A stretch of DNA of 41,331 nt from a virus. The position numbers were made by a program, and so were the translations under genes. Within the stretch, counting starts at the first letter, position 1. The number at the start of each line of letters is the position of its first letter. Below the pieces are notes generated by a model. The model was not told the origin of the DNA. It searched no databases and saw only the letters and a program-made list of their open reading frames with translations. Shown piece after piece: positions 1,121 through 38,403 of this stretch. The stretch lies in the IMG/VR virus record IMGVR_UViG_3300031803_000003, positions 1 to 41,331 of that record; one strand, given 5' to 3'.

Positions 1121-1441
1121 TTATTCCTCGTCGTCGTCATCATCATCGTCATCTTCGTCATCGCCATTCTTTTTCTTTTTTGCAAACGGGTTCTTCTTTT
1201 TCTTTTTTCCGTTCTCTTCTTCTTCTTCTTCTTCTGAACCATTTTCCTCATCATCATCTTCTTCGTCGTCTTTGTCGTGCTTTTCTCCGAAGAATTCTCC
1301 AGCCAATTCGATTTTCTTTAGGTTAATGGCATCAGTAATCTTATTCGACAATGCAGCGCCAAGAGAATCCTGCATATCGTTAGGATTTTCTTCTTTGGCA
1401 TATTGAATTGCCTGAGCAATATAGGATTCTGTTTCGTTCAT
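1121..1441 (-). CDS. Acidic prohead core protein, gp67-like
   Basis: A 106-aa protein directly after the portal gene. Residues 1-50 form a helical segment containing DSLGAALSNKITDAINLKK, similar to the L-x-x-K-I-x-D-A-I-x-x-K-K pattern I associate with small phage core proteins. Residues 55-106 are extreme low complexity: Asp/Glu runs broken by two Lys clusters (GKKKKKNPFAKKKK) and an all-acidic end. T4 gp67 is likewise a short, highly acidic prohead core protein that is degraded on maturation, so the call rests on size, acidity and position. A TATAAATA late promoter lies 22 bases upstream with a GAGGAG ribosome site. The repetitive Asp/Glu codons create long Ser-rich open frames on the opposite strand that are not genes. 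Confidence 0.65.
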   Translation of the reverse strand: MNETESYIAQAIQYAKEENPNDMQDSLGAALSNKITDAINLKKIELAGEFFGEKHDKDDEEDDDEENGSEEEEEEENGKKKKKNPFAKKKKNGDDEDDDDDDDDEE

Positions 1442-1485: not shown

Positions 1486-2994
1486 TTATACATCTTCCTC
1501 AGGTTCTTCTTCGCCTTCGGCTGGAGCTTCGCTACTAATTTGCTTATCAATCATTTCAATATCTTCGTGAGACTGTCGAAGAATATTCTTTCGGAGCCAC
1601 TCTTTCGAGAAATACTCACCCTTGAATTCTTCCATATCCCGAAGTAGTTCAACTCGACTTCGGAGTATTTCAGTTTCTTGAAGTTCAATAAAATGTGTAT
1701 CCTTCTGCCAATCGAAATAGATATTAGGCCTAAAATCTTCCCAATCTTCTGCTGTTACTACACCCTTCAATCGAAGCTGTGTCTCCAAAAGACTCAAGAA
1801 TAGTTGACCAAACCTACTTCGCAGTCGAGTAACAAATTTTCCAAACTTGACCTCGTCTCGCGTGATTTCAGCAGAACGACCAATATTAAACCCACCCTCT
1901 TGTTCCAGTCTAGATGCAGGAACATTCATGGCCTTATAGAGCTTCCTTCTGAAATACACAATATCTTCAATTTCACCGAGATTCTGCCCACCAGGAAGTG
2001 TTGTGATTTCAGTACCACGCCCGCCTTCGCGTCGAGGTAACCAATAATCCTCTAGCATGGTTCGATGTTCTCGCTCGTCACTAATTTCGCCTGTGCCTGA
2101 ATTATATACAAGACGATTCTTAAATTTAGTCATGATGTCGCGCAAGTATTGTTCGGCTTTGATCTTGGGAAGATTTCCTACATCAACATAGAAAATTCTT
2201 CGTTCAGGTGCGCGAGCAATACGATAAATGACAACAGCATCTTCTAGCATCTTTAGTTGGTTGTAAGGTTTGATGGCCTTGTGGAGATGAGAAATAATCA
2301 TCGCTTTTCTGGCGTCTAACAAACCACAATGCGTATAGCAAACACTATCCTTGGCAATTTTAATTCCGTTACCGCCGCCCTTTTGGTCTAGCCCTCGTTC
2401 ATTATAAATGAAATATTCTGCTCCGTTTGTTGTCACAGGAATATTCTGACCATCTCCAGACTTTATGCCAACTTTCTTAATGTGCTTTACTTTGCGTATT
2501 TTTCGGGGGTCAATATAACGAAGCTCTTGAATGCCTTTCTTGGGATTATCGACATCAATAATGATATGATAATACAATCGCCCATCTACATACCATCTCC
2601 GGAATGTGTCATAGCATTGATTTCCAAAATCAAGAAGGGTTAAGATTTCAATAAATTCGTTTTGAATTTTTGTTTTGATCGAAGAAGATTGTTCCAAATG
2701 GTCCAGGACAATATCAACTGGACCCCTTCCAACGCTAGTGACAATTGCCTCATTGACAATATCATCAACAGCATATTCAGCCTCAGGATACATTACCATT
2801 TCACGATACCGAGTGATTAACTCAGCTTCATTTTTAACGGCACCCTCAATATCAAGATAGGTGCCATACGCTCCCGCAAGCGGGGAGATTTGTAAGGCAC
2901 CCTCTAGGTTTTCTTTTTCAGCGAATGATTGAATTTTGGCGGGATTTTCTTCATCTTCCCGACCAATAGTAAAACCGAATAGTTTAACAGCCAT
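1486..2994 (-). CDS. 20: Portal vertex protein gp20
   Basis: A 502-aa protein (T4 gp20 is 524 aa) that forms the dodecameric ring through which DNA enters and leaves the head; it nucleates prohead assembly and docks the terminase. The N-terminal third carries the typical T4-like portal pattern YREMVMYPEAEYAVDDIVNEAIV (residues about 64-86), followed by YYHIIIDVDNPKKGIQELRYIDPRKIRK (about 142-170) and IYRIARAPERRIFYVDVGNLPK in the crown/stem region. The last 12 residues are acidic. The start uses an AGGA site about 10 bases upstream. Its own late promoter lies at 3067-3074, followed by a strong leader hairpin. Order tube, portal, core, protease is canonical. Confidence 0.95.
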   Translation of the reverse strand: MAVKLFGFTIGREDEENPAKIQSFAEKENLEGALQISPLAGAYGTYLDIEGAVKNEAELITRYREMVMYPEAEYAVDDIVNEAIVTSVGRGPVDIVLDHLEQSSSIKTKIQNEFIEILTLLDFGNQCYDTFRRWYVDGRLYYHIIIDVDNPKKGIQELRYIDPRKIRKVKHIKKVGIKSGDGQNIPVTTNGAEYFIYNERGLDQKGGGNGIKIAKDSVCYTHCGLLDARKAMIISHLHKAIKPYNQLKMLEDAVVIYRIARAPERRIFYVDVGNLPKIKAEQYLRDIMTKFKNRLVYNSGTGEISDEREHRTMLEDYWLPRREGGRGTEITTLPGGQNLGEIEDIVYFRRKLYKAMNVPASRLEQEGGFNIGRSAEITRDEVKFGKFVTRLRSRFGQLFLSLLETQLRLKGVVTAEDWEDFRPNIYFDWQKDTHFIELQETEILRSRVELLRDMEEFKGEYFSKEWLRKNILRQSHEDIEMIDKQISSEAPAEGEEEPEEDV

Positions 2995-3030
2995 AGTCTA
3001 GAATCCTATATTTACGAAGTAAAGGTAAGT

Positions 3031-3060
3031 GGTGTGGATAGACATGTTTCTACCCACACC
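3031..3060 (-). promoter_or_regulatory. Strong leader hairpin between late promoter and gp20
   Basis: An 11-bp stem (GGTGTGGGTAG pairing with CTATCCACACC, one G-T pair) with an 8-base loop. On the minus strand it begins 7 bases after the TATAAATA box, so it would sit at or very near the 5' end of the gp20 transcript. There is no T tract after it, which argues against a simple intrinsic terminator. It could instead protect the 5' end of the mRNA or mark the 3' end of readthrough gp19 mRNA. Confidence 0.6.
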
Positions 3061-3066
3061 TCAACC

Positions 3067-3074
3067 CTATTTAT
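3067..3074 (-). promoter_or_regulatory. T4-type late promoter for gp20
   Basis: Minus-strand TATAAATA in the gap between the gp19 stop and the gp20 start, 73 bases upstream of the gp20 ATG. Confidence 0.75.
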
Positions 3075-3082
3075 ATATTCAC

Positions 3083-3622
3083 TTAGGACGTAATTCCGGG
3101 AGTCTGCCAGAAATCATACTGCCATGTACATGTAAATTCTTCAAGTGCATCATTTGTTTCCCAAGCCAGATCAATTGGGGCAAGAACCGAAGGCCACATG
3201 TTTACAATAGTTACTCTCTTAATCTCTTCGCCAGCCTTTCCATAATGAATAACATCTGCTGTGGAATGATAGTTAATTGGATTACCTCCTGCTTCACGAA
3301 TATTCCCTGAATGAGAATTTATAGAATTCATCCAAGTCTGAATTGCGTTGTATACAGAAAAATCCTCATCATTAATAACTGTCGTAGTCCACTCTGGGAA
3401 GGTTCGATTGCCTGCAAGTTTGATTGTTCTACCAAAATATGGCATTTCAACCATCCCAAGATCCGAACCAGGCATCTGGGCCCCCTTACAGGTAAAGGTC
3501 ATCTTGGTCCCGGCCGCTCCTGGATTGGCAACTGAGGGGAATGGCATCACCACTTCAAACAGATTGGGGCGAGCCCCTCCGCCTGTCAATTGCGCCCTAA
3601 TATCGTTTACGTTAAAAGGCAT
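3083..3622 (-). CDS. 19: Tail tube protein gp19
   Basis: A 179-aa protein, close to the 163 aa of T4 gp19, which stacks as hexameric rings to form the inner tail tube through which DNA passes. The N-terminus MPFNVNDIRAQLTGGGARPNLFEVVMPFP is the typical marine T4-like tube start, and the C-terminal half contains the expected beta-rich core and a terminal TCTWQYDFW-type strand. It sits immediately downstream of the sheath gene, as in T4. An AAGGAG ribosome site precedes the ATG, and a TATAAATA box lies 38 bases upstream at 3660-3667. No oddities seen. Confidence 0.93.
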   Translation of the reverse strand: MPFNVNDIRAQLTGGGARPNLFEVVMPFPSVANPGAAGTKMTFTCKGAQMPGSDLGMVEMPYFGRTIKLAGNRTFPEWTTTVINDEDFSVYNAIQTWMNSINSHSGNIREAGGNPINYHSTADVIHYGKAGEEIKRVTIVNMWPSVLAPIDLAWETNDALEEFTCTWQYDFWQTPGITS

Positions 3623-5939: not shown

Positions 5940-7154
5940 TTAATGAAATTTAGGATCTGGAGTAGAATCTTTCTCAAAATCATTTCCCCATAACCACTTA
6001 TCGTCACCACGGTCTACGGCCACTTCTTCGATCACAGGGCCCGAGTCAATAAACCCAAAGGGCAACAATTCTTCTTCTTCGACCTTTGATTTGTCAGCCA
6101 AAATGCGTTTTCTGGCATCCACACTAGTCAGGTCTTTGAAATAGGGTTGAGTTGTGAGCCAACAAAATAAAACGAGTGTCATCACCAAGTCGTCATTATG
6201 CCCAGGCTCAGCCTCATAAGAATATCCACGAGAAACAAATGAAGTCAGTTCGGCAATGGTGTCAAAGTCTTCGATAATTAATTTATCACTTTCGACAAGG
6301 TTCTTGAGATTGAGACATCCTACTTGCTTTACTTTCTTGGTTGTCTTGATTCCCATTTGAGCCTGCCCTATACCAAAACCACCACCAAGAACTTGCCCTG
6401 CGCGCCCCCGTTGTGTGACCATTAGCATGTTGTCATATTCTAGGTCATAATGCAAAATGTCAGCCACTTGCTGCCCAATGTCATTGATTTCGACAAGAAT
6501 AAATGCTTCATTGTATTTCAGAGCAGCATTATGGATAACTGTGGGATAGGTTAATGGGGGAATTGTTGCATTGCGATACTTGGCCACCTGTTTATATGGA
6601 AATTCTGACGAATCAATGATCGAAAACGCAGAATAGTCCAGCCCTTCACCGTGTGATACATCGACAACTAGTGTATAAACATGCCCTTCTTGGGGTTCTT
6701 CATAGATGTCCATGTCTCCCAAAACTATAACCGGGTCTTTGAATGGCATATTCTTTAGCTTCGTTGCGTTAATCAGAGTATTAATTGAGCCGACAAAATC
6801 ACAATTATGGGAAAGAACGCCATTGGTGTAATATGTATGATCCTTTCCTGCATTAACGGCATCATACAATTCAATGAGGCCATCTACAATCTCGGCATAT
6901 ACGATTTCTATGAATCCGGATTTGGCCTGGACCTTATCTCCAACCTTTAGGTCCATCGCCAAGATAATATCCGAATTGACATCGAATAGGGGATGTCTAG
7001 GAGAACACTTCAACTCCACTCCATCCGATCCAATCAGATGCACACACCAGTCACGTTCGATCTTGTTTACTGCATAGAAATGCTCAAATCCGTTCGGAGT
7101 TTCTATTTTATGATTTGGTGTGTTCTGTATTATGGTCTTAGGAAGTCTAGGCAT
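5940..7154 (-). CDS. 17: C-intein fused to terminase large subunit C-terminal half (gp17-C, nuclease domain)
   Basis: A 404-aa protein. Residues 1-117 are a C-terminal split-intein fragment ending in GVLSHN; residue 118 is Cys (+1), where the terminase resumes with CDFVGS. Residues 118-404 are the gp17 RNase H-like headful nuclease domain: D165 and D173 in DVSHGEGLDYSAF and D321/D322 in GHNDDLVMTLVLFCW correspond to the metal-binding Asp positions of T4 gp17. After trans-splicing with residues 1-266 of the upstream gene, a 553-aa terminase results, near normal family length (T4: 610). The ATG at 7154 lies inside the end of the endonuclease gene (25-base overlap, different frame), with only a weak AGAG site, so translation may be coupled. 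Translated alone it lacks the ATPase domain, so splicing should be needed for function. Confidence 0.93.
   Translation of the reverse strand: MPRLPKTIIQNTPNHKIETPNGFEHFYAVNKIERDWCVHLIGSDGVELKCSPRHPLFDVNSDIILAMDLKVGDKVQAKSGFIEIVYAEIVDGLIELYDAVNAGKDHTYYTNGVLSHNCDFVGSINTLINATKLKNMPFKDPVIVLGDMDIYEEPQEGHVYTLVVDVSHGEGLDYSAFSIIDSSEFPYKQVAKYRNATIPPLTYPTVIHNAALKYNEAFILVEINDIGQQVADILHYDLEYDNMLMVTQRGRAGQVLGGGFGIGQAQMGIKTTKKVKQVGCLNLKNLVESDKLIIEDFDTIAELTSFVSRGYSYEAEPGHNDDLVMTLVLFCWLTTQPYFKDLTSVDARKRILADKSKVEEEELLPFGFIDSGPVIEEVAVDRGDDKWLWGNDFEKDSTPDPKFH
6804..7154 (-). other. C-terminal split intein fragment (IntC, 117 aa)
   Basis: Unusually long IntC carrying block B (ELKCSPRHPLF around residues 47-57, with Ser at the position of the usual TxxH Thr), a block containing AMDLKVGDKV (66-75), and blocks F/G (LIELYDAV, HTYYTNGVLSHN). 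The penultimate His116, terminal Asn117 and +1 Cys118 are the standard splicing residues. The N-terminal pattern (IETPNGF...NKIER) resembles the C-fragment of the AceL-TerL intein as I remember it. The fragment contains two Cys (37 and 50). Confidence 0.9.
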
Positions 7155-8104
7155 TTTTGAATCTCTTTTTGTGGGTCTTTAATGTAATCCTGCTCGTTTA
7201 TTCGGAGTGTCATATATCCCTTGCTCTCTAAAATAGCATCCCGGACTTCGTCCTTTGCTGTTCTACCCAATATAGAATGCCAATATGTGCCATCAAATTC
7301 AATATTTCTGGTACCCAACACAAAGTCCAAATAGTAGCAATGTTTGTTTGTTTGTTCTGGTCCGAACATTTTTATATCATTTTTGTTGACCCGGACACGA
7401 ACCTCCGAATTTAAATCACCAAAGCGAGCCAAAGGTCTATATTCCCCCTCTAGGCTGTTGTAAATTTCCCAAAATAATTCTTGTGAAATTTTCGACGACC
7501 CAAGAAATACACTACTCATGTTTTGAGCATATCCCTTTCGAGTTATTTGATGTGTACTGTTGCCATACCCCTTAGTGACCGTATAAAATTTTAATGCTTG
7601 ACCCGTTTCTAGGCATTTTGGCAAATCCCCTTCACAAAAATCATTAATGATTCTATATATTCGTTCCGTCAGTTTATCGGATTGTAGAATATGCGTTGAG
7701 GTGTGGTGTATAATACTTGCGCGTAAATTTGGATCACCCCACGTTATACCAGGAACAATTCCGTGGTTATATTCATCAACGAATACCGCACATTTATCTT
7801 TGGTTGTTTGGGCGTCATATATTACTTCAGGAATTTCCATTCCCTGGTATTTGATCCGGCTGGTGATTGTGTTTGTTTTCACAGAGAAACATTTCGCAAT
7901 CTCAAATGGCGATTTTCCTTCGGACAGCATGTCCTTTAAGCCGGTATTATCAATACCTTTGAAATAATTGGAAACTAGGCCGTGCTCCTTTAACCACCTA
8001 CGAACTATTTTACGCCCAACACCATATTTCTTAGCAATCCGAACCTGGCTAGTGCCACTCAATTCAAACTGAAGTTCCGCCTTTGTTCCTGGATAGCTCG
8101 TCAT
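7130..8104 (-). CDS. Free-standing Vsr-like (EDxHD) homing endonuclease inside the fractured terminase gene
   Basis: A 324-aa protein encoded between the two terminase halves. The N-terminal part has two helix-turn-helix-like segments, about residues 17-41 (TSQVRIAKKYGVGRKIVRRW) and 60-87 (GKSPFEIAKCFSVKTNTITSRI), expected for site-specific DNA binding. The C-terminal domain (about 205-320) shows the EDxHD nuclease pattern of Vsr-type homing enzymes: Glu209/213 in SQELFWEIYN, Asp260 in YYLDFVL, EFDGTYWH with His276, Asp289 in KDEVRDA, and a closing LRI strand. Such enzymes cut alleles lacking the insert and drive its spread. The start overlaps the N-intein end by 41 bases; AGGAG (8111-8115) supports it. 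A late promoter and hairpin lie just upstream within N-intein coding sequence. It lacks intein splicing motifs and is not fused to either half. Confidence 0.88.
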   Translation of the reverse strand: MTSYPGTKAELQFELSGTSQVRIAKKYGVGRKIVRRWLKEHGLVSNYFKGIDNTGLKDMLSEGKSPFEIAKCFSVKTNTITSRIKYQGMEIPEVIYDAQTTKDKCAVFVDEYNHGIVPGITWGDPNLRASIIHHTSTHILQSDKLTERIYRIINDFCEGDLPKCLETGQALKFYTVTKGYGNSTHQITRKGYAQNMSSVFLGSSKISQELFWEIYNSLEGEYRPLARFGDLNSEVRVRVNKNDIKMFGPEQTNKHCYYLDFVLGTRNIEFDGTYWHSILGRTAKDEVRDAILESKGYMTLRINEQDYIKDPQKEIQKCLDFLRP

Positions 8105-8975
8105 ATAATTCTCCTATAGCAATTTCCTGGGGACCATGTCCCTTGTCTATATTTATAATAGTTGATGCGCTAACCGATTCAAATTCCTGCGCGAATTGTT
8201 CCTTGCTCGTATTTCTGATTGTCTCTTCTTTCCACTGTTCGTCACGCCCCGGAACTTCACTCCAATGAACCTCGACAGGTTTGTATAGATTCTTTTTTTC
8301 TTGTGCATCCGACCACAATTTATAGAAGTGGTTCATTCCGCAAGGGGTACTGACGATAATGACTTTTGTAGTTTTACCGGAAGAAATTGTTGGATAGACA
8401 GAACTAAAGAATTCGTCTGCAATATTCTTAGGAACAAACGCAAACTCGTCAAGCAGAATCATGTTGTATGTTCCACCACGAACTGCACTAGAAGAAGTCG
8501 ATGCTGCAACAATTTTTGACCCATTCTCTAATTGCATGTCCCCACGATTCCATACCTTGATTCCTTGCTGTAGAAATGGGGGGAGATTCTCATAGGCCAA
8601 CTGTAGTCTGCCTAGAATATCACGGGCCAATGACCCCTTGTTTGCAAGGATGGCAATATTGACATCTTCGTTGAATAGAATATAGTGTAGAAAATAAGAA
8701 ACAACAGTCGTGGTCTTGCCTGACTGTCTCGGAAGTTTGGCAATGGCAAAGCGATTGTTATGAATCGTGTTTATAATTTTCTCTTGAAAGTCATACATGG
8801 TAAAGGGAACAAGCCCTTCATCTACATTGACAATTTTTACATAGTTGAGAATAAAATAAACAGGATCTTTAGAACACTTGATGTATTCTGAAATCTGGTC
8901 TTTTGTGAACTCTTCGTGTGTTCCGGCCTTCTTGAGAAGGGGATTCCCAAGATAGCCTGATTGTTGAGTAGCCAT
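8064..8975 (-). CDS. 17: Terminase large subunit N-terminal half (gp17-N, ATPase domain) fused to N-intein
   Basis: A 303-aa protein. Residues 1-266 are the packaging-motor ATPase of gp17: Walker A at 81-89 (LPRQSGKTT, Arg/Gln variant as in T4), Walker B at 172-177 (MILLDE), and coupling motif around 206-211 (IIVSTP). The sequence reads up to KEQFAQEFE, which continues directly into CDFVGS of the downstream gene if the intein is removed. Residues 267-303 are the N-intein fragment, beginning with Ser267. In T4 the same region runs unbroken into the nuclease domain. An AAGGAG site precedes the ATG; the gene lies 6 bases after gp16. The last 12 residues overlap the endonuclease start in another frame. 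Confidence 0.94.
   Translation of the reverse strand: MATQQSGYLGNPLLKKAGTHEEFTKDQISEYIKCSKDPVYFILNYVKIVNVDEGLVPFTMYDFQEKIINTIHNNRFAIAKLPRQSGKTTTVVSYFLHYILFNEDVNIAILANKGSLARDILGRLQLAYENLPPFLQQGIKVWNRGDMQLENGSKIVAASTSSSAVRGGTYNMILLDEFAFVPKNIADEFFSSVYPTISSGKTTKVIIVSTPCGMNHFYKLWSDAQEKKNLYKPVEVHWSEVPGRDEQWKEETIRNTSKEQFAQEFESVSASTIINIDKGHGPQEIAIGELYDELSRNKGGTSV
8111..8115 (-). promoter_or_regulatory. Strong Shine-Dalgarno of the homing endonuclease
   Basis: AGGAG six bases before the ATG at 8104, lying inside the N-intein coding frame. It decides the endonuclease start. Confidence 0.7.
8130..8142 (-). promoter_or_regulatory. Hairpin in the endonuclease leader
   Basis: Perfect 5-bp GC-rich stem GGGAC/GTCCC around a three-base loop, 8 bases after the embedded TATAAATA box and 26 bases before the endonuclease ATG. 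It lies in N-intein codons, so the sequence carries a protein and a possible RNA structure. Confidence 0.5.
8150..8157 (-). promoter_or_regulatory. T4-type late promoter embedded in N-intein coding sequence
   Basis: TATAAATA formed by the Ile-Ile-Asn-Ile codons (intein residues 7-10), 46 bases upstream of the endonuclease ATG. It would give the endonuclease, and possibly the C-half, its own late transcript. Confidence 0.65.
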
Positions 8976-28626: not shown

Positions 28627-31600
28627 CTATATCTTTTCTGGGCGCAATACGACTTTACCTGGCCCTATCCCTCTGAACTTATTGAGACCTCCGGTGAAGT
28701 CTACTTCATACTTTGTGTTGGCGGCTGGGTTCTCGTCCATAATTGTCATGGCCAACTGCCCGCCTTCGTCTGATACGAACGAACCATTGGCGTTTGGATA
28801 GATGGCAATGAGGCGTCTTCCGTTTTCTTCAAGAGTGTCGCTATTGTAAGACGGACCATCATGCATCGTAATATATACACCTTCGCTGAAATTATTTGCG
28901 CCAGTAGAAGGATTCCCTGGGTCTCCACCAGTAAAGGCACTATTAGCTGTTTTGGCCCCAAGGACGAAACTATCAATGCTGGCTGTTATCTGACCATAAC
29001 CGAAATTAATATTTGATGTATACATGGCTGTATTAACGACAACTTGAAGTGTCGAGAATTCTGTGTTGGATTGATTATACAATGGAAGCAACTCTGTATT
29101 CGATCCACGAGAATAACAGAATAGATTCGCCATGCCACCAAAGTAAATTCGATTTCGACTATCGACTTGTAATTGTTGATAATTGTTTTGATAATAGAGG
29201 TAACTATTTTGATCCGATGGGCCTATTCCGTGACGAGTAAACCCGAGATAACCATAATAAATTGAACTACTGCCACCATGATAGTTTAAGGTGTCGCGGA
29301 AATAATTATCAGGGAATAATTGTTCGATTTCTGTGTCGCCCATCTGATAACTATATCCTTTGGGCTTGATTCGATACATGGTATTTGCGCTCATGTAATA
29401 TAAATTAGGAGGTTCTTCGTGGTCTAATACCATGCCTGCACATGATTGCGACATTCCAACATTACTAGTTTGAGTGACATAATCGGTCACGGGCCACGCA
29501 GTCAATCCTGATGTATTTGCAAAGACAGGATAGACATTCTTGGTATAGTGTTCTCCTGTTTCAATATTTTGTTCTGTCACAACATGATAGCAATAGACAG
29601 AATTTGCACCTCTATTGGTTGGATCATATCCAGTATCACAGGCCACGAACAATGAATCTTTCGGACCAGAAATAATATTTGTCGGTCTCCAATTACCAAG
29701 CACATCATTGTTTGCATCGAGCGTTGTCGGATTTGCAAGCTCGAATACTCGACGACCACGTACTTGCCCCACAATATCGTGCGAAAGTCTTGTCACCCCA
29801 TTTGCATATGAAGTATTTGCAGCAGGAAGAATCTTGATAATATTTTGCGAACCACTACCCACAACATAGAGTGACCCTAGATCATCGGTAGAGAAATCAA
29901 CAAAAGAACCAGATCCTCCTCCAATTTCCGAAGCTGCCCATTCAGATTCGCTACGACCATATAAATCATTACCCCCAACCATCACACCAATACCGTCTGT
30001 TCCTCCTGTGTTTCCCCACAGAATTTGTTCAGCCGAGTAAGTGTTGGACCTTCCTCTTACAACAGGAGATGTGCTACCAACAGACCTTAGATTGTGTGGG
30101 TCTGCTGATTCAGACATATCAGTCTGAACATTGGCTGTAGGTGTCAATCGGAATAACATCAAGGGTTTGCTATCGGTACTCGAACCAAATCTTGGATAAC
30201 CTCCCGTATGGTCTTCATATACATAACCAACATATAGATTGTCATGGACATCTGTGTCAAGAATAACTGGACCACTAAACTGTCCATTACCCGTGGGCGT
30301 TCCTCCTCCGATATAATCTCCAAGAGCAGGAGAACCAGGAGCAGTTCTCAAAAACTTTTCTGAGTCAATAACTTCGGTGACAATCCAATCGAGATTATTT
30401 GCGGTATTTGCAGAGACTCGAAAAATTGCTCCGTTTGCATCAGATATTTGGTCGATCATTCCCGCATTAATAATACTCTTATCCGAATGCACATAGAGAA
30501 CAGGCGCACCGCGAGTAATTTCGCTCGGGGTTGTTGCAGCGGGAGCCACAGTTACAGAAAAATCACCAATGGTCTGATTACTAAAGTCAGTTGATTCTGA
30601 AGCTCGAATTCTATAGGGAATACCACCTGTTCCAGTTCCTGTATCGTTCAGACTAACGCCGGCCATATTGATCTCTGATGTCCAAGTATTTGCATATCCA
30701 ACAGGAATCGCATACGAACCCCGTTGCCATAGTGCTCCATCGTCTACTTGAATCCATGCAATTTCAAACTTTTCGCCCACAGGTTTGTTGTCTGGTTCAT
30801 AACATAACTGAAATGACATGGCTCCAATTCGGCGACCAGTACCACCATCTTGAGGAGAGGCTCCTGTGGTAGGATTAGCATCCTTCCACATGTTCTTACC
30901 GCCGTTATCGGGGAATATAAAATTATCAATCGTGGTGGGTTCAGTCTGCCCCAATTCCCACATATCCCATTCTAGAATATGCCATGGGCTCTTTGTACCA
31001 GGCAATACATCTGCCGAATTGATGAGTGTAGAAGGCTGAGCTGTGTTGGCCGAAGCATAAAACAATTTTCGCGCATCCAAGTCCATCCGAGGAGGATCGG
31101 GCATATCCGGAACACTCATCCCAGCATTCCATTGCGTAGGAGTCAATCCTAATGTTGGTCTCCAATGAGAACCGCCTGAGCCGGACGATGGATTTGTTGT
31201 TGGTTGACAAACACCCAACCATGAATCCGCTCCATATCCTCCGGGACCAATGCGACGAATTTTCATTCTCACATACCGATGGGCCCTTCCATCAATATCC
31301 AAAGGAGCAGTAACACCATAAATGTTAAAAGATTCAGATACAGTCCCATATGTCGTAGAAGCCTTTTCCCAACCATATTGACCGCGGCCGGCCTGGTCCG
31401 GAGTCTGATGCGCCGGCGCGATGAGCGAATGTGCATATAAAGCTCCAACATTTTCATTCTCGAAAGGAGACACCAACAAAGTTCGCCATCCCTCAATATT
31501 CCAAATTAACGAATCGTTGGTTACTGTTGTATATGCATTAGATGTTGCATAAGGAGCATACCCTAAAGCCTGGTCTTCATACGGCCAAATCGTATCATGA

Positions 31601-34600
31601 GGAGTATAATAGTGCGAATTTGCATATGGGCTTGTCAGAGGAGACTGGTCCCATGCAATCCATCCAGGCGACCCGGGAGTATTTTTTCCAGCCCCATGCG
31701 GTGTCACACCATGGGCTGCATCAAGGTCAAAGTCAGCTTCACCTACAATGTCCAGTCCAAATTGAGTATGATAACCCACACCTCGGCCAGAAATAGGAAC
31801 ATCTGCATATTCAGAAAGAAGAGTTGATTCTGCTCCCATATAATATGTTCTGAACAGGTCAACAATGTCTCCCAGCAAGGTGTCGTCAAATGCCCTCATG
31901 GCGGCAGACACAAAAGTTTGGATCTCAACCTGCCCAAACATAATAAGCCCAGCAGGATGAACCAACTTCTTTACCAGTTCTTTGTAGGTTCCAATCGAAA
32001 ACCCAGACTTGATTACATATGAATAAATTTGATAAAACCTATCATCCTGAATAAACTTTGGGCGCCATCTCGTTGCAGGTGAAGTTCCTATCTTGCCTGA
32101 GTCATCTAGATATTCACCAGCCTGTTTGAATTCTGTACCAATTTCTGCGGTGAGTGTTGCATCTCTTTGCTGTTCGATTTTGATGTAGTCGATGAGTGTT
32201 ATGTCGTCTTGACCTAAAGAATTAATAAACATGACTGGTCGGATAAATGTTGTATTTCCTGTGCCTTGTTGTGTCGCGGCTGCTTCAGATCCAAATAATC
32301 GTACAGGATTGGCCCACTTAAATTCCTGCTTAGGAGTTCCAAGACCAGCACTAGACTGTTCAATATTTCCACCATGCCCGTTCGAGGCGGGGAGGAGGGG
32401 GGAGTAAGCCGTTGTTGAATGTGTTCCTAGATGAGTTGTATTACCGCCATAGACAGCCTTATAAGTGGTCCAGTTTGAAGTCAGAGAACCAGATTCGGCA
32501 GGGTCACCACCAGGCGATTGCACAATTGAATATAATTTATCCCAACTAGGTTCACCAAGGGTGCCAATCAAATCTATTCCAGTATTAGAGAATCCAATTA
32601 TACCAATACTAGTATTTGAAGCCGTGGATGCACTTCCATCTTTAGCATTTGCGCTCATCTTATAACGAATAGTTGGGTCGAATGGAATATTTTTATTAGT
32701 AATAATATGAAGACCATCATCGAGCGTCGTCGTATCTCCATCTCCAACCCTCAAATATTTTCCGACATTTCCAAGAGTGGTAGGAAAAGTAACCTCGACA
32801 GGGTTGGTATCAGAATAAAAATTAGTTCCTTGATTGAGTGCCTTCCAGTCTCCGCTCAATGTCTTGTCGAATCGACCCCCAGGATTATAGAACAAATGTT
32901 CAATTTGATTCCACGAAAGAGCCTTGTCATAATATCGAGCCTCGTCAAATCCACCATGGACCTTTTGATCTCCCTCGGTGACAAACATGTCTCCATTTGC
33001 GCTCTCGGACTTCTCGCCGAGTTTGACTGCGCGCCCTTGTGCAGGAATTCCAGTTCCTAACAACAAGGCTCCAGTTTCAGTGCCCTGATTAGGAAAGGCA
33101 TAAGGGCTTGGTTCGTATACCCCGTCCTCCGTAACCTCTTCTAACATGAAACCGTCTAGATAAAGATCCTGAGAATCACTACCAACCAAAAACTGAAAGG
33201 CTAGAGCATCAATTTCATTGCCTGGCGGCTCGGGTGTTTGTCCAACCGCAACATATTGAATATCAAATGCATCATCTTCTTCCAAATCTCGAAATATTTG
33301 AAATTCGATGCCGGTTATCGTTCTTTCGCGCCAAGTAGGAATTTTATGCATACGCCAATATTCAATAGCCCATACACCATCGTTTCCGGTACCGGATCGC
33401 AACCATGCCCTAGCTGTTTGATCGCCGCCATCTCCTCCCATGGTTTCGTCTAATGTAGTCGTCCACCGTAATAGCGAGGTTGATTCAAAATTAGACACAA
33501 GCTGTGGGATAGTGGGGATACCTTCACCAAGGCCGTTTGTTATACCCTTATTCCAACAAACAAGAGTTTCAGTCCTCACTAGTTTAGAAGTATCTAGTGT
33601 ACCACTAAACTCTGTATTTGCCCTCCATCTCAATTTGAAATCATTAATCAGCTTACCACTAAATGGATTGTCTCCGGCTGGAATGGCTGCACCGACTCCC
33701 TCGCCTTGAAGATTAAAATTGGCTTGAAGTTTTCGGTGCCTTGGGTCCGCTTCACCACCAGCACCAATAATAGTATATAATACAGGGCCATCCTCGGTCG
33801 CGGCCTTATATGTTGTAGTCATATTCGACCCAATGGGATCCCAATTAGAATCGTCGGTCAGAGCGGGGTTGTCCCAGTAATCATCAATAACTCTGAGAGC
33901 GGTGGTAGTGCTACCCCAGTTCGTATAACCATAATATGTATTTGAATGTCTCAGGTCAAAAAATTGATGTTTTCTAAACCACGTACCGGCAACAGCAACA
34001 TTTGCGGCCGAGCCGCCGGCGTGGCTTAGCTGTTCAAGTCCAATATTATCACCAATATGGGGAGGAAAGGTACTCCCCGGCGCATTCCCGCCTGTATTAT
34101 ACTGAGGTATTGTGTTATAACCTAAGTCAAAATCACTGGCATACCATGCATTAGTTTTCCAAATTCCACTTAACCAATTATTTGCTGTGCCATCGTCGTT
34201 GAAACGCTTGTATAAAGTCAATGTTCCACTATCATAATCGGATGTTGGTGCTTTTCCTGTAGAAGCACTAACGGGCCCGATCCCTGTTCCCTTAACCACA
34301 GATGATTTCACATAATAAGAAAAAATCCATCTCTTTCCTTTTGGAATTTCCATTAAATAGGGAGACACTCCATCATTAGGAGTGCCTAAAGGATCATCAA
34401 TCTCGCGGAGCTTGTTATTTTGTGCTCCCGTGGTGGACCCTCCCATAAGATAAGTCCATATATAATTTGGCATTTTTCCATCGGGAGCCGTCGTTGTTGT
34501 CGCGACATTAGAATTATATGTTCGGAAGGCATTTCCGGTGACATAACTATTTGCCCCAGGAGTATCACGAATAACCTCTGCCCTTGCGGTGTTTCCTGTA

Positions 34601-37600
34601 CCAGCGGTTGCTGATTGCAGCTCATCATTAATAGCAGCAATCGACGACCCAGTGTGCCATTGCGGGTCGCCGGTCTGCGGGCGTGCCTGCACATGCATTG
34701 CGTGTGTGGTCAGGCGAGGTTCATTGCCGCCCGAGATGGGACCATGAGTATATGCCGAACTCGGGGCCTGGCCGGTCAGTCCCATAGGAACAATATTTGG
34801 GCTGCTTAGTGTACCTGGACTAAAGCGTGAATCCAATGTAAATCCATTGGCCAAAAGCAATCCATCTGTTGTATTGAAAATATATACATTGGCTACAAGA
34901 TTAGTATAGTCAATCGTGAGCGTGAACATGTTCCATGTGTCAGCCCTTACAGTACCGCCGCCTTCAGGGAAGTGCAAGCCCGAAGAACCACCCCGTATGC
35001 GAATAGGCTGAACGTAAAGTTTCTTATTGACGATGCCAGTCCAGTTAATTACATTAACACTTGCCCATTTTGCACTAGCGGATGGAATGTAAGTAAAATC
35101 GTTAGTTGTCCATGTAGTTAGTACCGGACCATTAGTGATATTATTAAAATTACCACCGGACACGCCAGAAGTGGTCGTAGACGTAGACACCTGCACGTCA
35201 GGTCCATGCGGCAGACCTTCCGCGCCGTTTAATGAAATATAAAACTTATCGGCTGGCAGGTCACCATTATATTCATAAATTCTAACATAATACCCAGTGC
35301 CTGCATCTGAACCACTAACCTTTTTAGTTATGCTAAAGGTTCTTTCTATGCCATCCTCAACATTAAAGGCTTTCCATGCAGCGCCAAAGCTCTGGTCATG
35401 ACCAAGGCTTCCGTCAATAGTAATCACGGTCATCTCATCTACGGTTTCGGTATAAACATCACTTTCATCATCATTGGAATAACATACCTGTGCATCCAAC
35501 CCAGTATCAGCGCCAGGATAATAGCCTGCGCTATTTGCGAGCTTTTGATAGTAGCCGACATGATTACCATTGTCAAATTTTGCATTAGGGAATGAAAATA
35601 GGGTGTCTATATAATCGCCTGTCGTTACAGCCGACGATGTATAGGCATTCATAGACCAACTCCAATGGCCGACTGTATCTCTTGACACAATCATTTCAGA
35701 CCCACTACCTATTTGATCGGTCATTGTTCCCGTAGACTTTTCTGAAGGATTGAACCAGAAGGACCATGTCTGAGTATTTGCACTACTAATATCATCATGG
35801 GGCATCAGAACCAGGCCACCCTCGGCGAGCGTTCCAATTGAAGTGCTACCAGCCCCGAAAATTCCTGCATTTGCAAAGGCAGTTTCAAACCTGGGATTGA
35901 TAGTTGGCCTAAATTCGTCATAATCTTGCAGAGAAAACCCGTCATATAATACAGTATTTCCGACGCTTCGAGTGTGCAACCCGGCCGATGAAGAACCAAC
36001 ATTTAATATTACAGAATCTATTTCATTGGCTTTAAGATCGTTGCCGGTAACCGTTAGACCCCCATGACTATATTGCGAATTTATGGTGCCTATACCATCG
36101 CCGGTGATCCTATGATTGTTGTTGGGTTGGTCAGTCAATGTAAAATCAAGAATCATCTCAAATCGTTCCCATTGACGTGGGGCAGAAAAAATAGTTGTGT
36201 GCTTATAAAAAGCAACATTTGCCTGTAGGTCTTCCATATTTCTTACGAAAACCCAAGATTGAACATCTTCTGGGACTATGTTAGAGTCTGAATATGCATA
36301 ATAAGAAAAAATCCATTTTTTTCCTTTCGGTATTTCGGCTACCCATGAACCATTCCACACCCCCTCGGCATCATCTCTAAATTCATAACTACCTATAACA
36401 GGTAGAGCGTTTGCAAACGTCATATAACTTGCGCCGCCGACGGTAATCTTATACTCTAAACTAGAAGTTCCAACATAACTAAAAGAGGTATTAATGCTCG
36501 CCTCCGGAGTGGAGCCGTACTGGGCAATTGGATATAGGTCCGGGGTGTCCTCGGTAAGACTACTATGAGGTCCGATTACATATAAACTCTCTGGTTTCTT
36601 GCTAAAGTCTTGATATCCATCTGTAATTAGATTAGGTGTCGTCCCCCGCCACGATGCAACTCTCGCATGATGCCCCTGGCCACTTTCGTCACGGACAATA
36701 GGTTGAAAACCAGTCCATCCAGTTGAAAGATATGTATTTGCTCCTGTTCGATCTGGAACAGCCATGGCATTTGTATATGTGTGATTAACATAACTTAGCT
36801 GGACATCACTCAATGTGTCATAATTCGGGTTTGCAACAAATGTAATGTCGCCTACACGAGGACCCTTAAATGTATTGTTAGCCACAGGATCATTACTATC
36901 ATTGGCTGTTGCATCGGCTGTGCTAATCGTCGCATCTTTGTGATAATAGGAATTCATCTTCCAGTATCCCTTGAGCCCTTCGTCTACTCCCGGGATAGTA
37001 ACAAAATTCATAATACTGTTGGCAGTCACATCAGCAGGATTTAAAACTCCTCTAAATTCAGTATATGCCAAATCGTCATAAGGATGATTTGTAGAAGGAC
37101 CCACATTTGAACTTGCGCCTCGGTTATCCGATTCGGTAAAGAATGAATTGGCGCCTGTATACTGAGAGAAATCATTATAGAAAATTGTCTCTAGTGGCCC
37201 AGCCGCAAATCGCGCGGCTCCTGCATCTGCATTATGAGGGGCTGTCATATCCAAAATGGGGACACTAGTATAACTATAACCAGGGTCAACGATTTTCATG
37301 GAAGTAATTCCACCAGAGGTCGCATTTGTTGTTAATACTTCTGCAACCGCGCCTTTGGCATCGTCATTGGTAGAATTAACAACAACTCGGTCACCAACAT
37401 GATAGTTAGAACCCGAATCTATGATTTTAACATTATTGACTAAACCAAGAACTTCTGCTCTGACTGTCGTTCCATCACCAACATTGTCGGTGTTAATAAA
37501 TTCTCCTGCAACAAAAGTTCCTAGTTTATTGCTTAATTCCAACTCAACAAACCTAACCCCTACATAAAGAATCTCTAGTGCCTTTTCAACGACCGCGGTA

Positions 37601-38403
37601 GCCAGTGATACTCCACCTTTAATTTTTCGCCCAACAAAGTCAGATGATATGCCGGTCACTGGAAGGTTAACACGAATAACTACAACATTTTTCCAGTTGG
37701 CATCACTAGCCCGAAGCATATCTGTTTCCGGAAGATAGATAGAACTATCTTCACCATATAACAATCGAAACAAAAACTTGAACGAATTTTCAGTACCACG
37801 AGCCTTGTAAAAGTCTCGAATATTTTTTAAAACCTTACGAGTATCGGCATCTCTATGTAATGTCAAAGGAAGATTTACGGCAAATTCATTTTTGATATAT
37901 TGAACATAATCGTCCAAAGTTTCATCAATATCTTTTGTGCCCAATAAATCTAATGATGCTCGCGTAGAACCAGCCTTGAGACTTTCTGTCTTATTTACAG
38001 GAAAAAACTTAACTCCACTCTTTACTCCAACAATCTCAACATCTTTTATGAAAGTTTTACTTGTTCCCCCAAATGATGTAATAATCGCAGTTTGGGCTGT
38101 TGCATCTCCAGACCATGCAAAAACTTTTGCAGATGCAGTTACTTCAGTAGAATCATCTGAATTAGCCTTTTGTTGAATCGTTTCACCAATTTGAAATTGG
38201 CCACCATAAGGATTGTTATTAGGCTTATATATTGTGGGAAAGGGATTAATTACGACCAGAGGAAGTGTAGTGGGCGGAGATTCAGATTCCAAAAATTCAT
38301 AATAGGATTTCAAAAACTGGACAAAATTATCATGATCTTCTCTAATAAAATCAGGAATCTGTTCTTCGAGGATCGCAGAAATTTTGTTGTTTTTTATAGC
38401 CAT
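28627..38403 (-). CDS. Giant gp7-like baseplate wedge protein with LamG-like and beta-propeller-like insertions
   Basis: A 3258-aa protein in the gp7 slot between gp6 and gp8 (T4 gp7: 1032 aa). The first 400 residues are the wedge-type N-terminus: ILEEQIPDFIREDHDNFVQFLKSYYEFLE, YVQYIKNEFAVNLPL, FYKARGTENSFKFLFRLLYGEDSSIYLP. A second conserved piece, DRFYQIYSYVIKSGFSIGTYKELVKKLVHPAGLIMFGQ, is at about 2115-2155, so a large insert separates two core parts. The insert holds LamG-like sheets at about 840-1215 and 1700-1845 (GGFDEARYYDKALSWNQIEHLFYNPGG), and two modules marked by IPKGKKWIFSYY / IPKGKRWIFSYY. About 2690-3110 carries DxxGxLYV-type blades resembling an NHL/six-bladed propeller. These are sugar- or protein-binding folds. 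The start is coupled to gp6 (3-base gap). Confidence 0.82.
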   Translation of the reverse strand: MAIKNNKISAILEEQIPDFIREDHDNFVQFLKSYYEFLESESPPTTLPLVVINPFPTIYKPNNNPYGGQFQIGETIQQKANSDDSTEVTASAKVFAWSGDATAQTAIITSFGGTSKTFIKDVEIVGVKSGVKFFPVNKTESLKAGSTRASLDLLGTKDIDETLDDYVQYIKNEFAVNLPLTLHRDADTRKVLKNIRDFYKARGTENSFKFLFRLLYGEDSSIYLPETDMLRASDANWKNVVVIRVNLPVTGISSDFVGRKIKGGVSLATAVVEKALEILYVGVRFVELELSNKLGTFVAGEFINTDNVGDGTTVRAEVLGLVNNVKIIDSGSNYHVGDRVVVNSTNDDAKGAVAEVLTTNATSGGITSMKIVDPGYSYTSVPILDMTAPHNADAGAARFAAGPLETIFYNDFSQYTGANSFFTESDNRGASSNVGPSTNHPYDDLAYTEFRGVLNPADVTANSIMNFVTIPGVDEGLKGYWKMNSYYHKDATISTADATANDSNDPVANNTFKGPRVGDITFVANPNYDTLSDVQLSYVNHTYTNAMAVPDRTGANTYLSTGWTGFQPIVRDESGQGHHARVASWRGTTPNLITDGYQDFSKKPESLYVIGPHSSLTEDTPDLYPIAQYGSTPEASINTSFSYVGTSSLEYKITVGGASYMTFANALPVIGSYEFRDDAEGVWNGSWVAEIPKGKKWIFSYYAYSDSNIVPEDVQSWVFVRNMEDLQANVAFYKHTTIFSAPRQWERFEMILDFTLTDQPNNNHRITGDGIGTINSQYSHGGLTVTGNDLKANEIDSVILNVGSSSAGLHTRSVGNTVLYDGFSLQDYDEFRPTINPRFETAFANAGIFGAGSTSIGTLAEGGLVLMPHDDISSANTQTWSFWFNPSEKSTGTMTDQIGSGSEMIVSRDTVGHWSWSMNAYTSSAVTTGDYIDTLFSFPNAKFDNGNHVGYYQKLANSAGYYPGADTGLDAQVCYSNDDESDVYTETVDEMTVITIDGSLGHDQSFGAAWKAFNVEDGIERTFSITKKVSGSDAGTGYYVRIYEYNGDLPADKFYISLNGAEGLPHGPDVQVSTSTTTSGVSGGNFNNITNGPVLTTWTTNDFTYIPSASAKWASVNVINWTGIVNKKLYVQPIRIRGGSSGLHFPEGGGTVRADTWNMFTLTIDYTNLVANVYIFNTTDGLLLANGFTLDSRFSPGTLSSPNIVPMGLTGQAPSSAYTHGPISGGNEPRLTTHAMHVQARPQTGDPQWHTGSSIAAINDELQSATAGTGNTARAEVIRDTPGANSYVTGNAFRTYNSNVATTTTAPDGKMPNYIWTYLMGGSTTGAQNNKLREIDDPLGTPNDGVSPYLMEIPKGKRWIFSYYVKSSVVKGTGIGPVSASTGKAPTSDYDSGTLTLYKRFNDDGTANNWLSGIWKTNAWYASDFDLGYNTIPQYNTGGNAPGSTFPPHIGDNIGLEQLSHAGGSAANVAVAGTWFRKHQFFDLRHSNTYYGYTNWGSTTTALRVIDDYWDNPALTDDSNWDPIGSNMTTTYKAATEDGPVLYTIIGAGGEADPRHRKLQANFNLQGEGVGAAIPAGDNPFSGKLINDFKLRWRANTEFSGTLDTSKLVRTETLVCWNKGITNGLGEGIPTIPQLVSNFESTSLLRWTTTLDETMGGDGGDQTARAWLRSGTGNDGVWAIEYWRMHKIPTWRERTITGIEFQIFRDLEEDDAFDIQYVAVGQTPEPPGNEIDALAFQFLVGSDSQDLYLDGFMLEEVTEDGVYEPSPYAFPNQGTETGALLLGTGIPAQGRAVKLGEKSESANGDMFVTEGDQKVHGGFDEARYYDKALSWNQIEHLFYNPGGRFDKTLSGDWKALNQGTNFYSDTNPVEVTFPTTLGNVGKYLRVGDGDTTTLDDGLHIITNKNIPFDPTIRYKMSANAKDGSASTASNTSIGIIGFSNTGIDLIGTLGEPSWDKLYSIVQSPGGDPAESGSLTSNWTTYKAVYGGNTTHLGTHSTTAYSPLLPASNGHGGNIEQSSAGLGTPKQEFKWANPVRLFGSEAAATQQGTGNTTFIRPVMFINSLGQDDITLIDYIKIEQQRDATLTAEIGTEFKQAGEYLDDSGKIGTSPATRWRPKFIQDDRFYQIYSYVIKSGFSIGTYKELVKKLVHPAGLIMFGQVEIQTFVSAAMRAFDDTLLGDIVDLFRTYYMGAESTLLSEYADVPISGRGVGYHTQFGLDIVGEADFDLDAAHGVTPHGAGKNTPGSPGWIAWDQSPLTSPYANSHYYTPHDTIWPYEDQALGYAPYATSNAYTTVTNDSLIWNIEGWRTLLVSPFENENVGALYAHSLIAPAHQTPDQAGRGQYGWEKASTTYGTVSESFNIYGVTAPLDIDGRAHRYVRMKIRRIGPGGYGADSWLGVCQPTTNPSSGSGGSHWRPTLGLTPTQWNAGMSVPDMPDPPRMDLDARKLFYASANTAQPSTLINSADVLPGTKSPWHILEWDMWELGQTEPTTIDNFIFPDNGGKNMWKDANPTTGASPQDGGTGRRIGAMSFQLCYEPDNKPVGEKFEIAWIQVDDGALWQRGSYAIPVGYANTWTSEINMAGVSLNDTGTGTGGIPYRIRASESTDFSNQTIGDFSVTVAPAATTPSEITRGAPVLYVHSDKSIINAGMIDQISDANGAIFRVSANTANNLDWIVTEVIDSEKFLRTAPGSPALGDYIGGGTPTGNGQFSGPVILDTDVHDNLYVGYVYEDHTGGYPRFGSSTDSKPLMLFRLTPTANVQTDMSESADPHNLRSVGSTSPVVRGRSNTYSAEQILWGNTGGTDGIGVMVGGNDLYGRSESEWAASEIGGGSGSFVDFSTDDLGSLYVVGSGSQNIIKILPAANTSYANGVTRLSHDIVGQVRGRRVFELANPTTLDANNDVLGNWRPTNIISGPKDSLFVACDTGYDPTNRGANSVYCYHVVTEQNIETGEHYTKNVYPVFANTSGLTAWPVTDYVTQTSNVGMSQSCAGMVLDHEEPPNLYYMSANTMYRIKPKGYSYQMGDTEIEQLFPDNYFRDTLNYHGGSSSIYYGYLGFTRHGIGPSDQNSYLYYQNNYQQLQVDSRNRIYFGGMANLFCYSRGSNTELLPLYNQSNTEFSTLQVVVNTAMYTSNINFGYGQITASIDSFVLGAKTANSAFTGGDPGNPSTGANNFSEGVYITMHDGPSYNSDTLEENGRRLIAIYPNANGSFVSDEGGQLAMTIMDENPAANTKYEVDFTGGLNKFRGIGPGKVVLRPEKI

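What the first reader, a model, noticed from the sequence alone, without database searches (positions are those of the whole stretch)
8064..8177. Ser1 N-intein split early between blocks A and B
The intein begins with Ser (TCG) rather than Cys, while the C-extein begins with Cys. The break leaves only block A on IntN and puts block B on IntC, as in the rare AceL-TerL/VidaL-type atypical split inteins. A Ser1/Cys+1 pair in that class is uncommon as far as I know, and would make IntN itself cysteine-free.
Basis: partly seen in the sequence, partly recalled or inferred. Interest (0 to 1): 0.72.

Follow-up and report, generated by a model that had tools for sequence, protein, structure and literature searches.

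The report
Serine-start split intein in phage terminase
A virus that infects bacteria makes its DNA-packaging motor as two separate pieces that a self-cutting protein element should join. It uses an unusual serine/cysteine chemistry that is already known from one laboratory-tested example and turns out here to occur in many environmental phages.

Summary
On the minus strand, TerL (T4 gp17-like) is broken into TerL-N+IntN (8975-8064), a free-standing endonuclease gene (8104-7130) and IntC+TerL-C (7154-5940). Close intein-free alleles read ...QEFE^C[DE]F, which fixes the junctions at FE|Ser1 and HN|Cys+1. IntN is 37 aa, cysteine-free and holds block A only; block B is on IntC.

The combination is not new. 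GOS-TerL (Bachmann & Mootz 2015, read here only through later papers) is a TerL intein with Ser1/Cys+1, the same atypical split and a 37-aa IntN. It was called the only known Ser1/Cys+1 intein in 2023.

What this work adds:
- Ser1/Cys+1 recurs: 25 distinct examples (window included) against 60 Cys1 at the same TerL site.
- A single Ser1 clade is rejected (AU p=0.0024).
- The 'NX' histidine of other Ser1 inteins is absent.
- Ser1 alleles carry Vsr-like (EDxHD) endonucleases, never GIY-YIG, though kinship confounds this.
- The nearest intein relative (L001, TerL 97% identical) is Cys1 with a GIY-YIG gene. It shares 119 identical bp at the end of IntC but no DNA similarity across IntN and the endonuclease, which suggests cassette exchange.

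Splicing itself was not tested.

The parts
8178..8975 (-). TerL N-extein (T4 gp17-like ATPase part), ends ...EQFAQEFE
   Evidence: ORF; Pfam Terminase_6N 2.7e-26
8064..8177 (-). IntN, 37 aa plus stop; Ser1 = TCG at 8177-8175; block A only; no Cys
   Evidence: junction from empty alleles
7130..8104 (-). Free-standing Vsr-like (EDxHD) homing endonuclease gene, 324 aa, overlaps the end of IntN and the start of IntC
6804..7154 (-). IntC, 117 aa; block B His54 (6995-6993), blocks F and G, ends His-Asn
6784..6902 (-). 119 bp identical in DNA to the Cys1 allele L001: last 33 IntC codons and start of the C-extein
5940..6803 (-). TerL C-extein (nuclease part) with stop; Cys+1 = TGT at 6803-6801
   Evidence: Pfam Terminase_6C 2.3e-8

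Best explanation
This is a naturally split, class 1-type TerL intein of the GOS-TerL kind, in a 'fractured gene' with a homing endonuclease gene between its halves. Three proteins are encoded in a row on the minus strand: TerL-N+IntN, the endonuclease, and IntC+TerL-C. Inferred from known intein chemistry and not shown here: the 37-aa IntN docks on IntC and completes the fold; block B His helps Ser1 attack the preceding Glu-Ser bond (N-to-O shift); Cys+1 takes over the acyl group (oxoester to thioester); the last Asn cyclises; and an intact T4-type TerL is released. The Vsr-like (EDxHD) endonuclease most likely cuts intein-free TerL alleles and so spreads the whole insert (inferred).
For: ORFs and plausible ribosome-binding sites. 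Junctions fixed by empty alleles. Intein blocks B, F and G conserved, and CatC match E 1e-20. 24 further distinct Ser1/Cys+1 loci with the same split at the same TerL site. GOS-TerL precedent: Ser1/Cys+1, IntN 37 aa, splices by the oxoester-to-thioester route (PMC11766414; PMC10189870). Endonuclease fold and motif. Rfam finds no intron.
Against: No splicing was tested. The same Ser1/Cys+1 combination inactivates AceL-TerL, so activity cannot be assumed from sequence alone. The window is one metagenomic contig and reads were not available. Pfam's intein models match only weakly (best E about 0.004-0.007).
Confidence: 0.92

Rival explanations
1. A decayed or inactive split intein: Ser1 is a loss-of-function change and TerL is no longer joined.
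For: The Ser1/Cys+1 combination inactivates the related AceL-TerL (PMC11766414).
Against: Ser1 occurs in 25 distinct sequences in several lineages, nearly all with intact block B His, block G His-Asn and Cys+1 (L058 reads NKN and L060 has a changed block F). TerL is essential for packaging in T4-like phages and both exteins are intact here. GOS-TerL with the same pair splices.
Confidence: 0.06
2. Sequencing or assembly artefact at the Ser codon.
For: Single contig; reads not available.
Against: TCG needs two changes from either Cys codon; 24 other distinct loci share Ser1, with four codon types in all.
Confidence: 0.01
3. The Ser1 state arose here by point mutation from a Cys1 ancestor shared with L001 (or Cys1 arose in L001 from Ser1), rather than arriving with an IntN-endonuclease cassette.
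For: Window and L001 are sisters in the intein tree even without the shared identical region (99/96 support).
Against: No DNA similarity between them from the first intein codon to IntC codon 17, while the extein up to the junction is 90.7% identical. Their endonucleases are unrelated (Vsr-like versus GIY-YIG). The window's IntN is most like other Ser1 IntNs.
Confidence: 0.35

Closest known systems
GOS-TerL split intein (Bachmann & Mootz 2015, J Biol Chem; read here only through PMC11766414 and PMC10189870)
   Same: Ser1/Cys+1, TerL host, split between blocks A and B, IntN of 37 aa, no NX histidine.
   Different: IntC reported as 115 aa, here 117. Its sequence is not held, so identity could not be measured. 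Its activity is measured, this one's is not.
AceL-TerL split intein (its IntN, as recalled, found here in L167/L168) and the consensus Cat intein (PDB 6dsl)
   Same: Same TerL site, same early split, homologous IntC (E 1e-20 to CatC).
   Different: Cys1 instead of Ser1; IntN 25 or 30 aa; no endonuclease gene between the halves in L167.
Vibrio phage Va1 TerL split intein (MK387337.2, L046)
   Same: IntN CVSGSTIINI closely resembles SVSASTIINI; a Vsr-like endonuclease lies between the halves.
   Different: Cys1; the endonuclease is fused in frame to IntC.
I-Bth0305I (EDxHD homing endonuclease, PDB 3r3p)
   Same: Catalytic domain fold (Z 10.5) and corresponding acidic residues.
   Different: Intron-encoded; about 25% identity in the aligned domain; the N-terminal DNA-binding part was not compared.
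PolB16 OarG atypically split intein (PMC10189870)
   Same: Ser1 and a short IntN.
   Different: Cysteine-less (oxygen nucleophile at +1), depends on the NX histidine, polymerase host.

Membership tests
GOS-TerL-type split intein (Ser1/Cys+1, atypical split) | Residue 1 is Ser | tested here: met
   TCG at 8177-8175; junction fixed by empty alleles
GOS-TerL-type split intein (Ser1/Cys+1, atypical split) | Residue +1 is Cys | tested here: met
   TGT at 6803-6801, also Cys in empty alleles
GOS-TerL-type split intein (Ser1/Cys+1, atypical split) | Break between blocks A and B, IntN about 37 aa, TerL host | tested here: met
   IntN 37 aa then stop; block B on IntC; TerL exteins
GOS-TerL-type split intein (Ser1/Cys+1, atypical split) | No NX-motif histidine | tested here: met
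   NKI at the NX position in the window; no His nearby in 24 of 25 Ser1 sequences, L308 has RIH. The NX position was inferred by spacing to block B, not from a structure
GOS-TerL-type split intein (Ser1/Cys+1, atypical split) | Sequence identity to GOS-TerL | not testable with these tools
   The GOS-TerL sequence was not found in any held collection or paper
GOS-TerL-type split intein (Ser1/Cys+1, atypical split) | Trans-splices via oxoester to thioester | not testable with these tools
   Needs bench work
Class 1 intein | Nucleophile at position 1, block B His, block G His-Asn | tested here: met
   S1, H54 of IntC, H116-N117
Class 3 intein | No nucleophile at position 1 and Cys in block F | tested here: not met
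   Ser1 present; block F has Asp (LYD)
Canonically split intein (DnaE-type) | Break near the usual endonuclease insertion site, IntN about 100 aa | tested here: not met
   IntN is 37 aa
EDxHD (Vsr-like) homing endonuclease | Vsr-like catalytic domain with conserved E, D, H, D residues | tested here: met
   E269, D271, H276, D289 invariant in 11 relatives; I-Bth0305I Z 10.5; profile match E 0.00038
EDxHD (Vsr-like) homing endonuclease | Cuts the intein-free site | not testable with these tools
   Needs bench work

The most novel reading that the evidence does not exclude
The identity of the splicing nucleophile is exchanged in nature as a cassette. IntN (carrying Ser1 or Cys1) travels with its own endonuclease gene and is swapped onto a resident IntC, so blocks F and G tolerate either chemistry. 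The window and L001 would be two products at one site, sharing the last 33 IntC codons exactly.
Probability: 0.4. Interest if true: 0.62.

Novelty: new member of a known kind. Interest (0 to 1): 0.48.

Why it matters
Going from an oxoester to a thioester is energetically uphill, and GOS-TerL stood alone as the intein that does it. A set of 25 natural Ser1/Cys+1 sequences, in several lineages and next to Cys1 relatives at the same site, lets one ask by comparison and mutation what a Ser1 intein needs. The window/L001 pair is a natural experiment: the last third of IntC is identical in DNA, so whatever sets the Ser1 or Cys1 requirement should lie in IntN and the first two thirds of IntC. New short, cysteine-free IntN peptides could also be useful for protein labelling.

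Tried and rejected
1. One origin of Ser1: rejected by the AU test (p=0.0024). A main clade of 20 is well supported (99/93), but the window, L059/L064, L060 and L308 fall outside it. The tree needs 5 changes; strongly supported branches force only 3, and long branches make L060 and L308 unsure.
2. Joining the window to the main Ser1 clade: rejected more weakly (p=0.022).
3. The window-L001 sister pair being only an effect of the identical 119 bp: not so, the pair stays without that region.
4. Ser1 requiring a Vsr-like endonuclease: among 15 Ser1 loci with a gene in between, 13 are Vsr-like, 0 GIY-YIG, 2 other (these two align with Vsr-like outliers); among 47 such Cys1 loci, 4, 35 and 8. Only 2-3 independent contrasts exist, so shared ancestry cannot be separated from a functional link.
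5. Intron instead of intein: no Rfam match in the window.
6. Residues specific to Ser1: block A Gly4 is usually absent (2 of 25 versus 47 of 60 in Cys1), and Gly22 of IntN and Pro after block B His are enriched, but kinship confounds these.
7. Plasmid search for the intein: no match. All TerL-site inteins in the phage records I opened were Cys1; the rest were not read.
These require Cys+1, so they say nothing about other +1 residues. Each scan kept only 80 of about 245-298 relatives, so counts are lower bounds and not unbiased frequencies.

Full report
WHAT IS THERE. The window is a fragment of a T4-like phage genome: small and large terminase, portal, sheath, tube and baseplate genes are recognisable. 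The large terminase region is in three minus-strand ORFs: 8975-8064, 8104-7130 and 7154-5940. Each start codon has a plausible ribosome-binding site (GGAG, AGGAG, AAGAGA), and the ORFs overlap by 41 and 25 bp. The first carries the TerL ATPase (Pfam Terminase_6N, 2.7e-26) and the last the TerL nuclease (Terminase_6C, 2.3e-8).

THE JUNCTIONS. Close relatives without the insert read QEFE^C[DE]F (L002-L007, L010). L002 is 91.6% identical upstream and 93.5% downstream in DNA. The inserted sequence therefore begins with Ser (TCG, 8177-8175) and ends with His-Asn (to 6804), and the Cys that follows (6803-6801) is TerL's own. IntN is 37 residues without cysteine and its stop ends at 8064. Blocks B, F and G are on IntC. 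IntC matches the engineered consensus intein CatC at E 1e-20.

IS IT KNOWN. Yes. A 2025 review (PMC11766414) describes GOS-TerL as the first intein with Ser1/Cys+1, atypically split, with a 37-aa IntN and a 115-aa IntC; the same combination inactivates its homologue AceL-TerL. [quoted passage not shown] The original 2015 paper is not held and the GOS-TerL sequence could not be compared.

HOW COMMON IS IT. Scans of IMG/VR with an IntC-tail plus C-extein alignment gave 245-298 relatives per scan, 80 kept each time. With the cultured phages and a few genome contigs added and duplicates removed, 84 sequences have both halves in order on one strand: 24 Ser1 (window included) and 60 Cys1, all with Cys+1, which the scans required. 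L058 makes 25 Ser1. All 25 Ser1 have a stop after IntN; 11 of the 60 Cys1 do not. Ser1 is encoded by AGT, TCG, TCT and TCA. The AceL-TerL IntN, as I recall its sequence, appears in L167/L168.

ANCESTRY. In a tree of IntN (without residue 1) plus IntC, 20 Ser1 sequences form one clade (99/93). The window pairs with the Cys1 sequence L001 (100/97), L059/L064 group with the Cys1 sequence L067, and L060 and L308 stand apart on long branches. Holding all Ser1 together is rejected (p=0.0024). Strongly supported branches force at least 3 changes of state. The direction of change is not resolved.

ENDONUCLEASES. The window's middle gene has a helix-turn-helix part and a C-terminal domain with IEFDGTYWH...D; these acidic and histidine residues are invariant in 11 relatives. 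Its profile finds I-Bth0305I in the PDB (E 0.00038) and its predicted structure (pLDDT 82.6, pTM 0.51) matches that catalytic domain best (Z 10.5, 93 of 97 residues). It is best called an EDxHD/Vsr-like homing endonuclease. Among Ser1 loci with a gene between the halves, 13 are of this family, none GIY-YIG and 2 other; among Cys1 loci 4, 35 and 8. With only 2-3 independent contrasts, shared ancestry cannot be excluded as the cause.

A MOSAIC. L001 comes from a phage whose TerL N-extein protein is 97% identical to the window's. At the same site it has Cys1 and a GIY-YIG gene. DNA similarity between the two is 90.7% up to the last extein codon, undetectable from the first intein codon to IntC codon 17, lower in the next part of IntC, then 119 identical bp covering the last 33 IntC codons and the first extein codons, then about 85-90%. 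The window's IntN is most like other Ser1 IntNs, and its endonuclease is most like those of Ser1 loci, while its IntC is most like that of L001. The sister relation holds without the identical stretch. The simplest reading is that IntN plus endonuclease were exchanged as a unit over a shared IntC, with later gene conversion at the end of IntC. The IntN part of this rests on about 30 residues and is inference.

MECHANISM. Shown: gene layout, junctions, conserved residues, predicted endonuclease fold. Inferred from GOS-TerL and class 1 chemistry: N-to-O shift at Ser1 helped by block B His, transfer to Cys+1, Asn cyclisation, joining of TerL. The NX histidine is missing in the window and in essentially all 25 Ser1/Cys+1 sequences (L308 has a His one position off). 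This fits the suggestion in PMC10189870 that a Cys+1 acceptor makes that histidine less needed. Because the last third of IntC is identical in a Ser1 and a Cys1 allele, what tunes the active site to Ser1 probably lies in IntN and the first two thirds of IntC.

VERDICT. A real, well-defined Ser1/Cys+1 atypically split TerL intein: a new member of the GOS-TerL kind. The single intein is not novel in type. The size of the group, its several lineages and the natural Cys1 counterpart are what deserve attention.

Noticed in passing
L001 2069-4717 with 2904-3530: A GIY-YIG gene lies out of frame inside one continuous 882-aa TerL-intein ORF. The intein frame has no stop across it, against a mean of 7.9 stops when the gene's own synonymous codons are shuffled (0.01% open). 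It may be an intein that can splice in cis while encoding an overlapping endonuclease.
   Followed up: partly
L058 314-2725 (-) and 4001-5224 (+): The IntN- and IntC-bearing TerL halves are on opposite strands, so they must come from separate transcripts. IntC ends NKN instead of SHN, and the N-half carries further intein-like inserts.
   Followed up: no
L060 3769-4305: The block F Asp is replaced by Cys (FYCVVN) in a Ser1/Cys+1 intein.
   Followed up: no
L166, L172, L175: Relatives of AceL-TerL without a stop after IntN; possibly a cis form of the same intein.
   Followed up: no
L054 (Campylobacter phage CPX) 2998-4326: An IntC-TerL ORF at a different TerL site (HN|CAFIDKW), annotated only as terminase; its N-half was not found nearby.
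   Followed up: no
L056, L061, L070, L076: Several TerL genes carry two or more inteins at different sites, among them the Walker A region and the site studied here.
   Followed up: no
window 28627-38403 (-): A 3,258-aa ORF whose N-terminus matches baseplate wedge families, with a very long extension.
   Followed up: no
window 1121-1441 (-): A 106-aa ORF with extreme runs of Glu, Lys and Asp.
   Followed up: no
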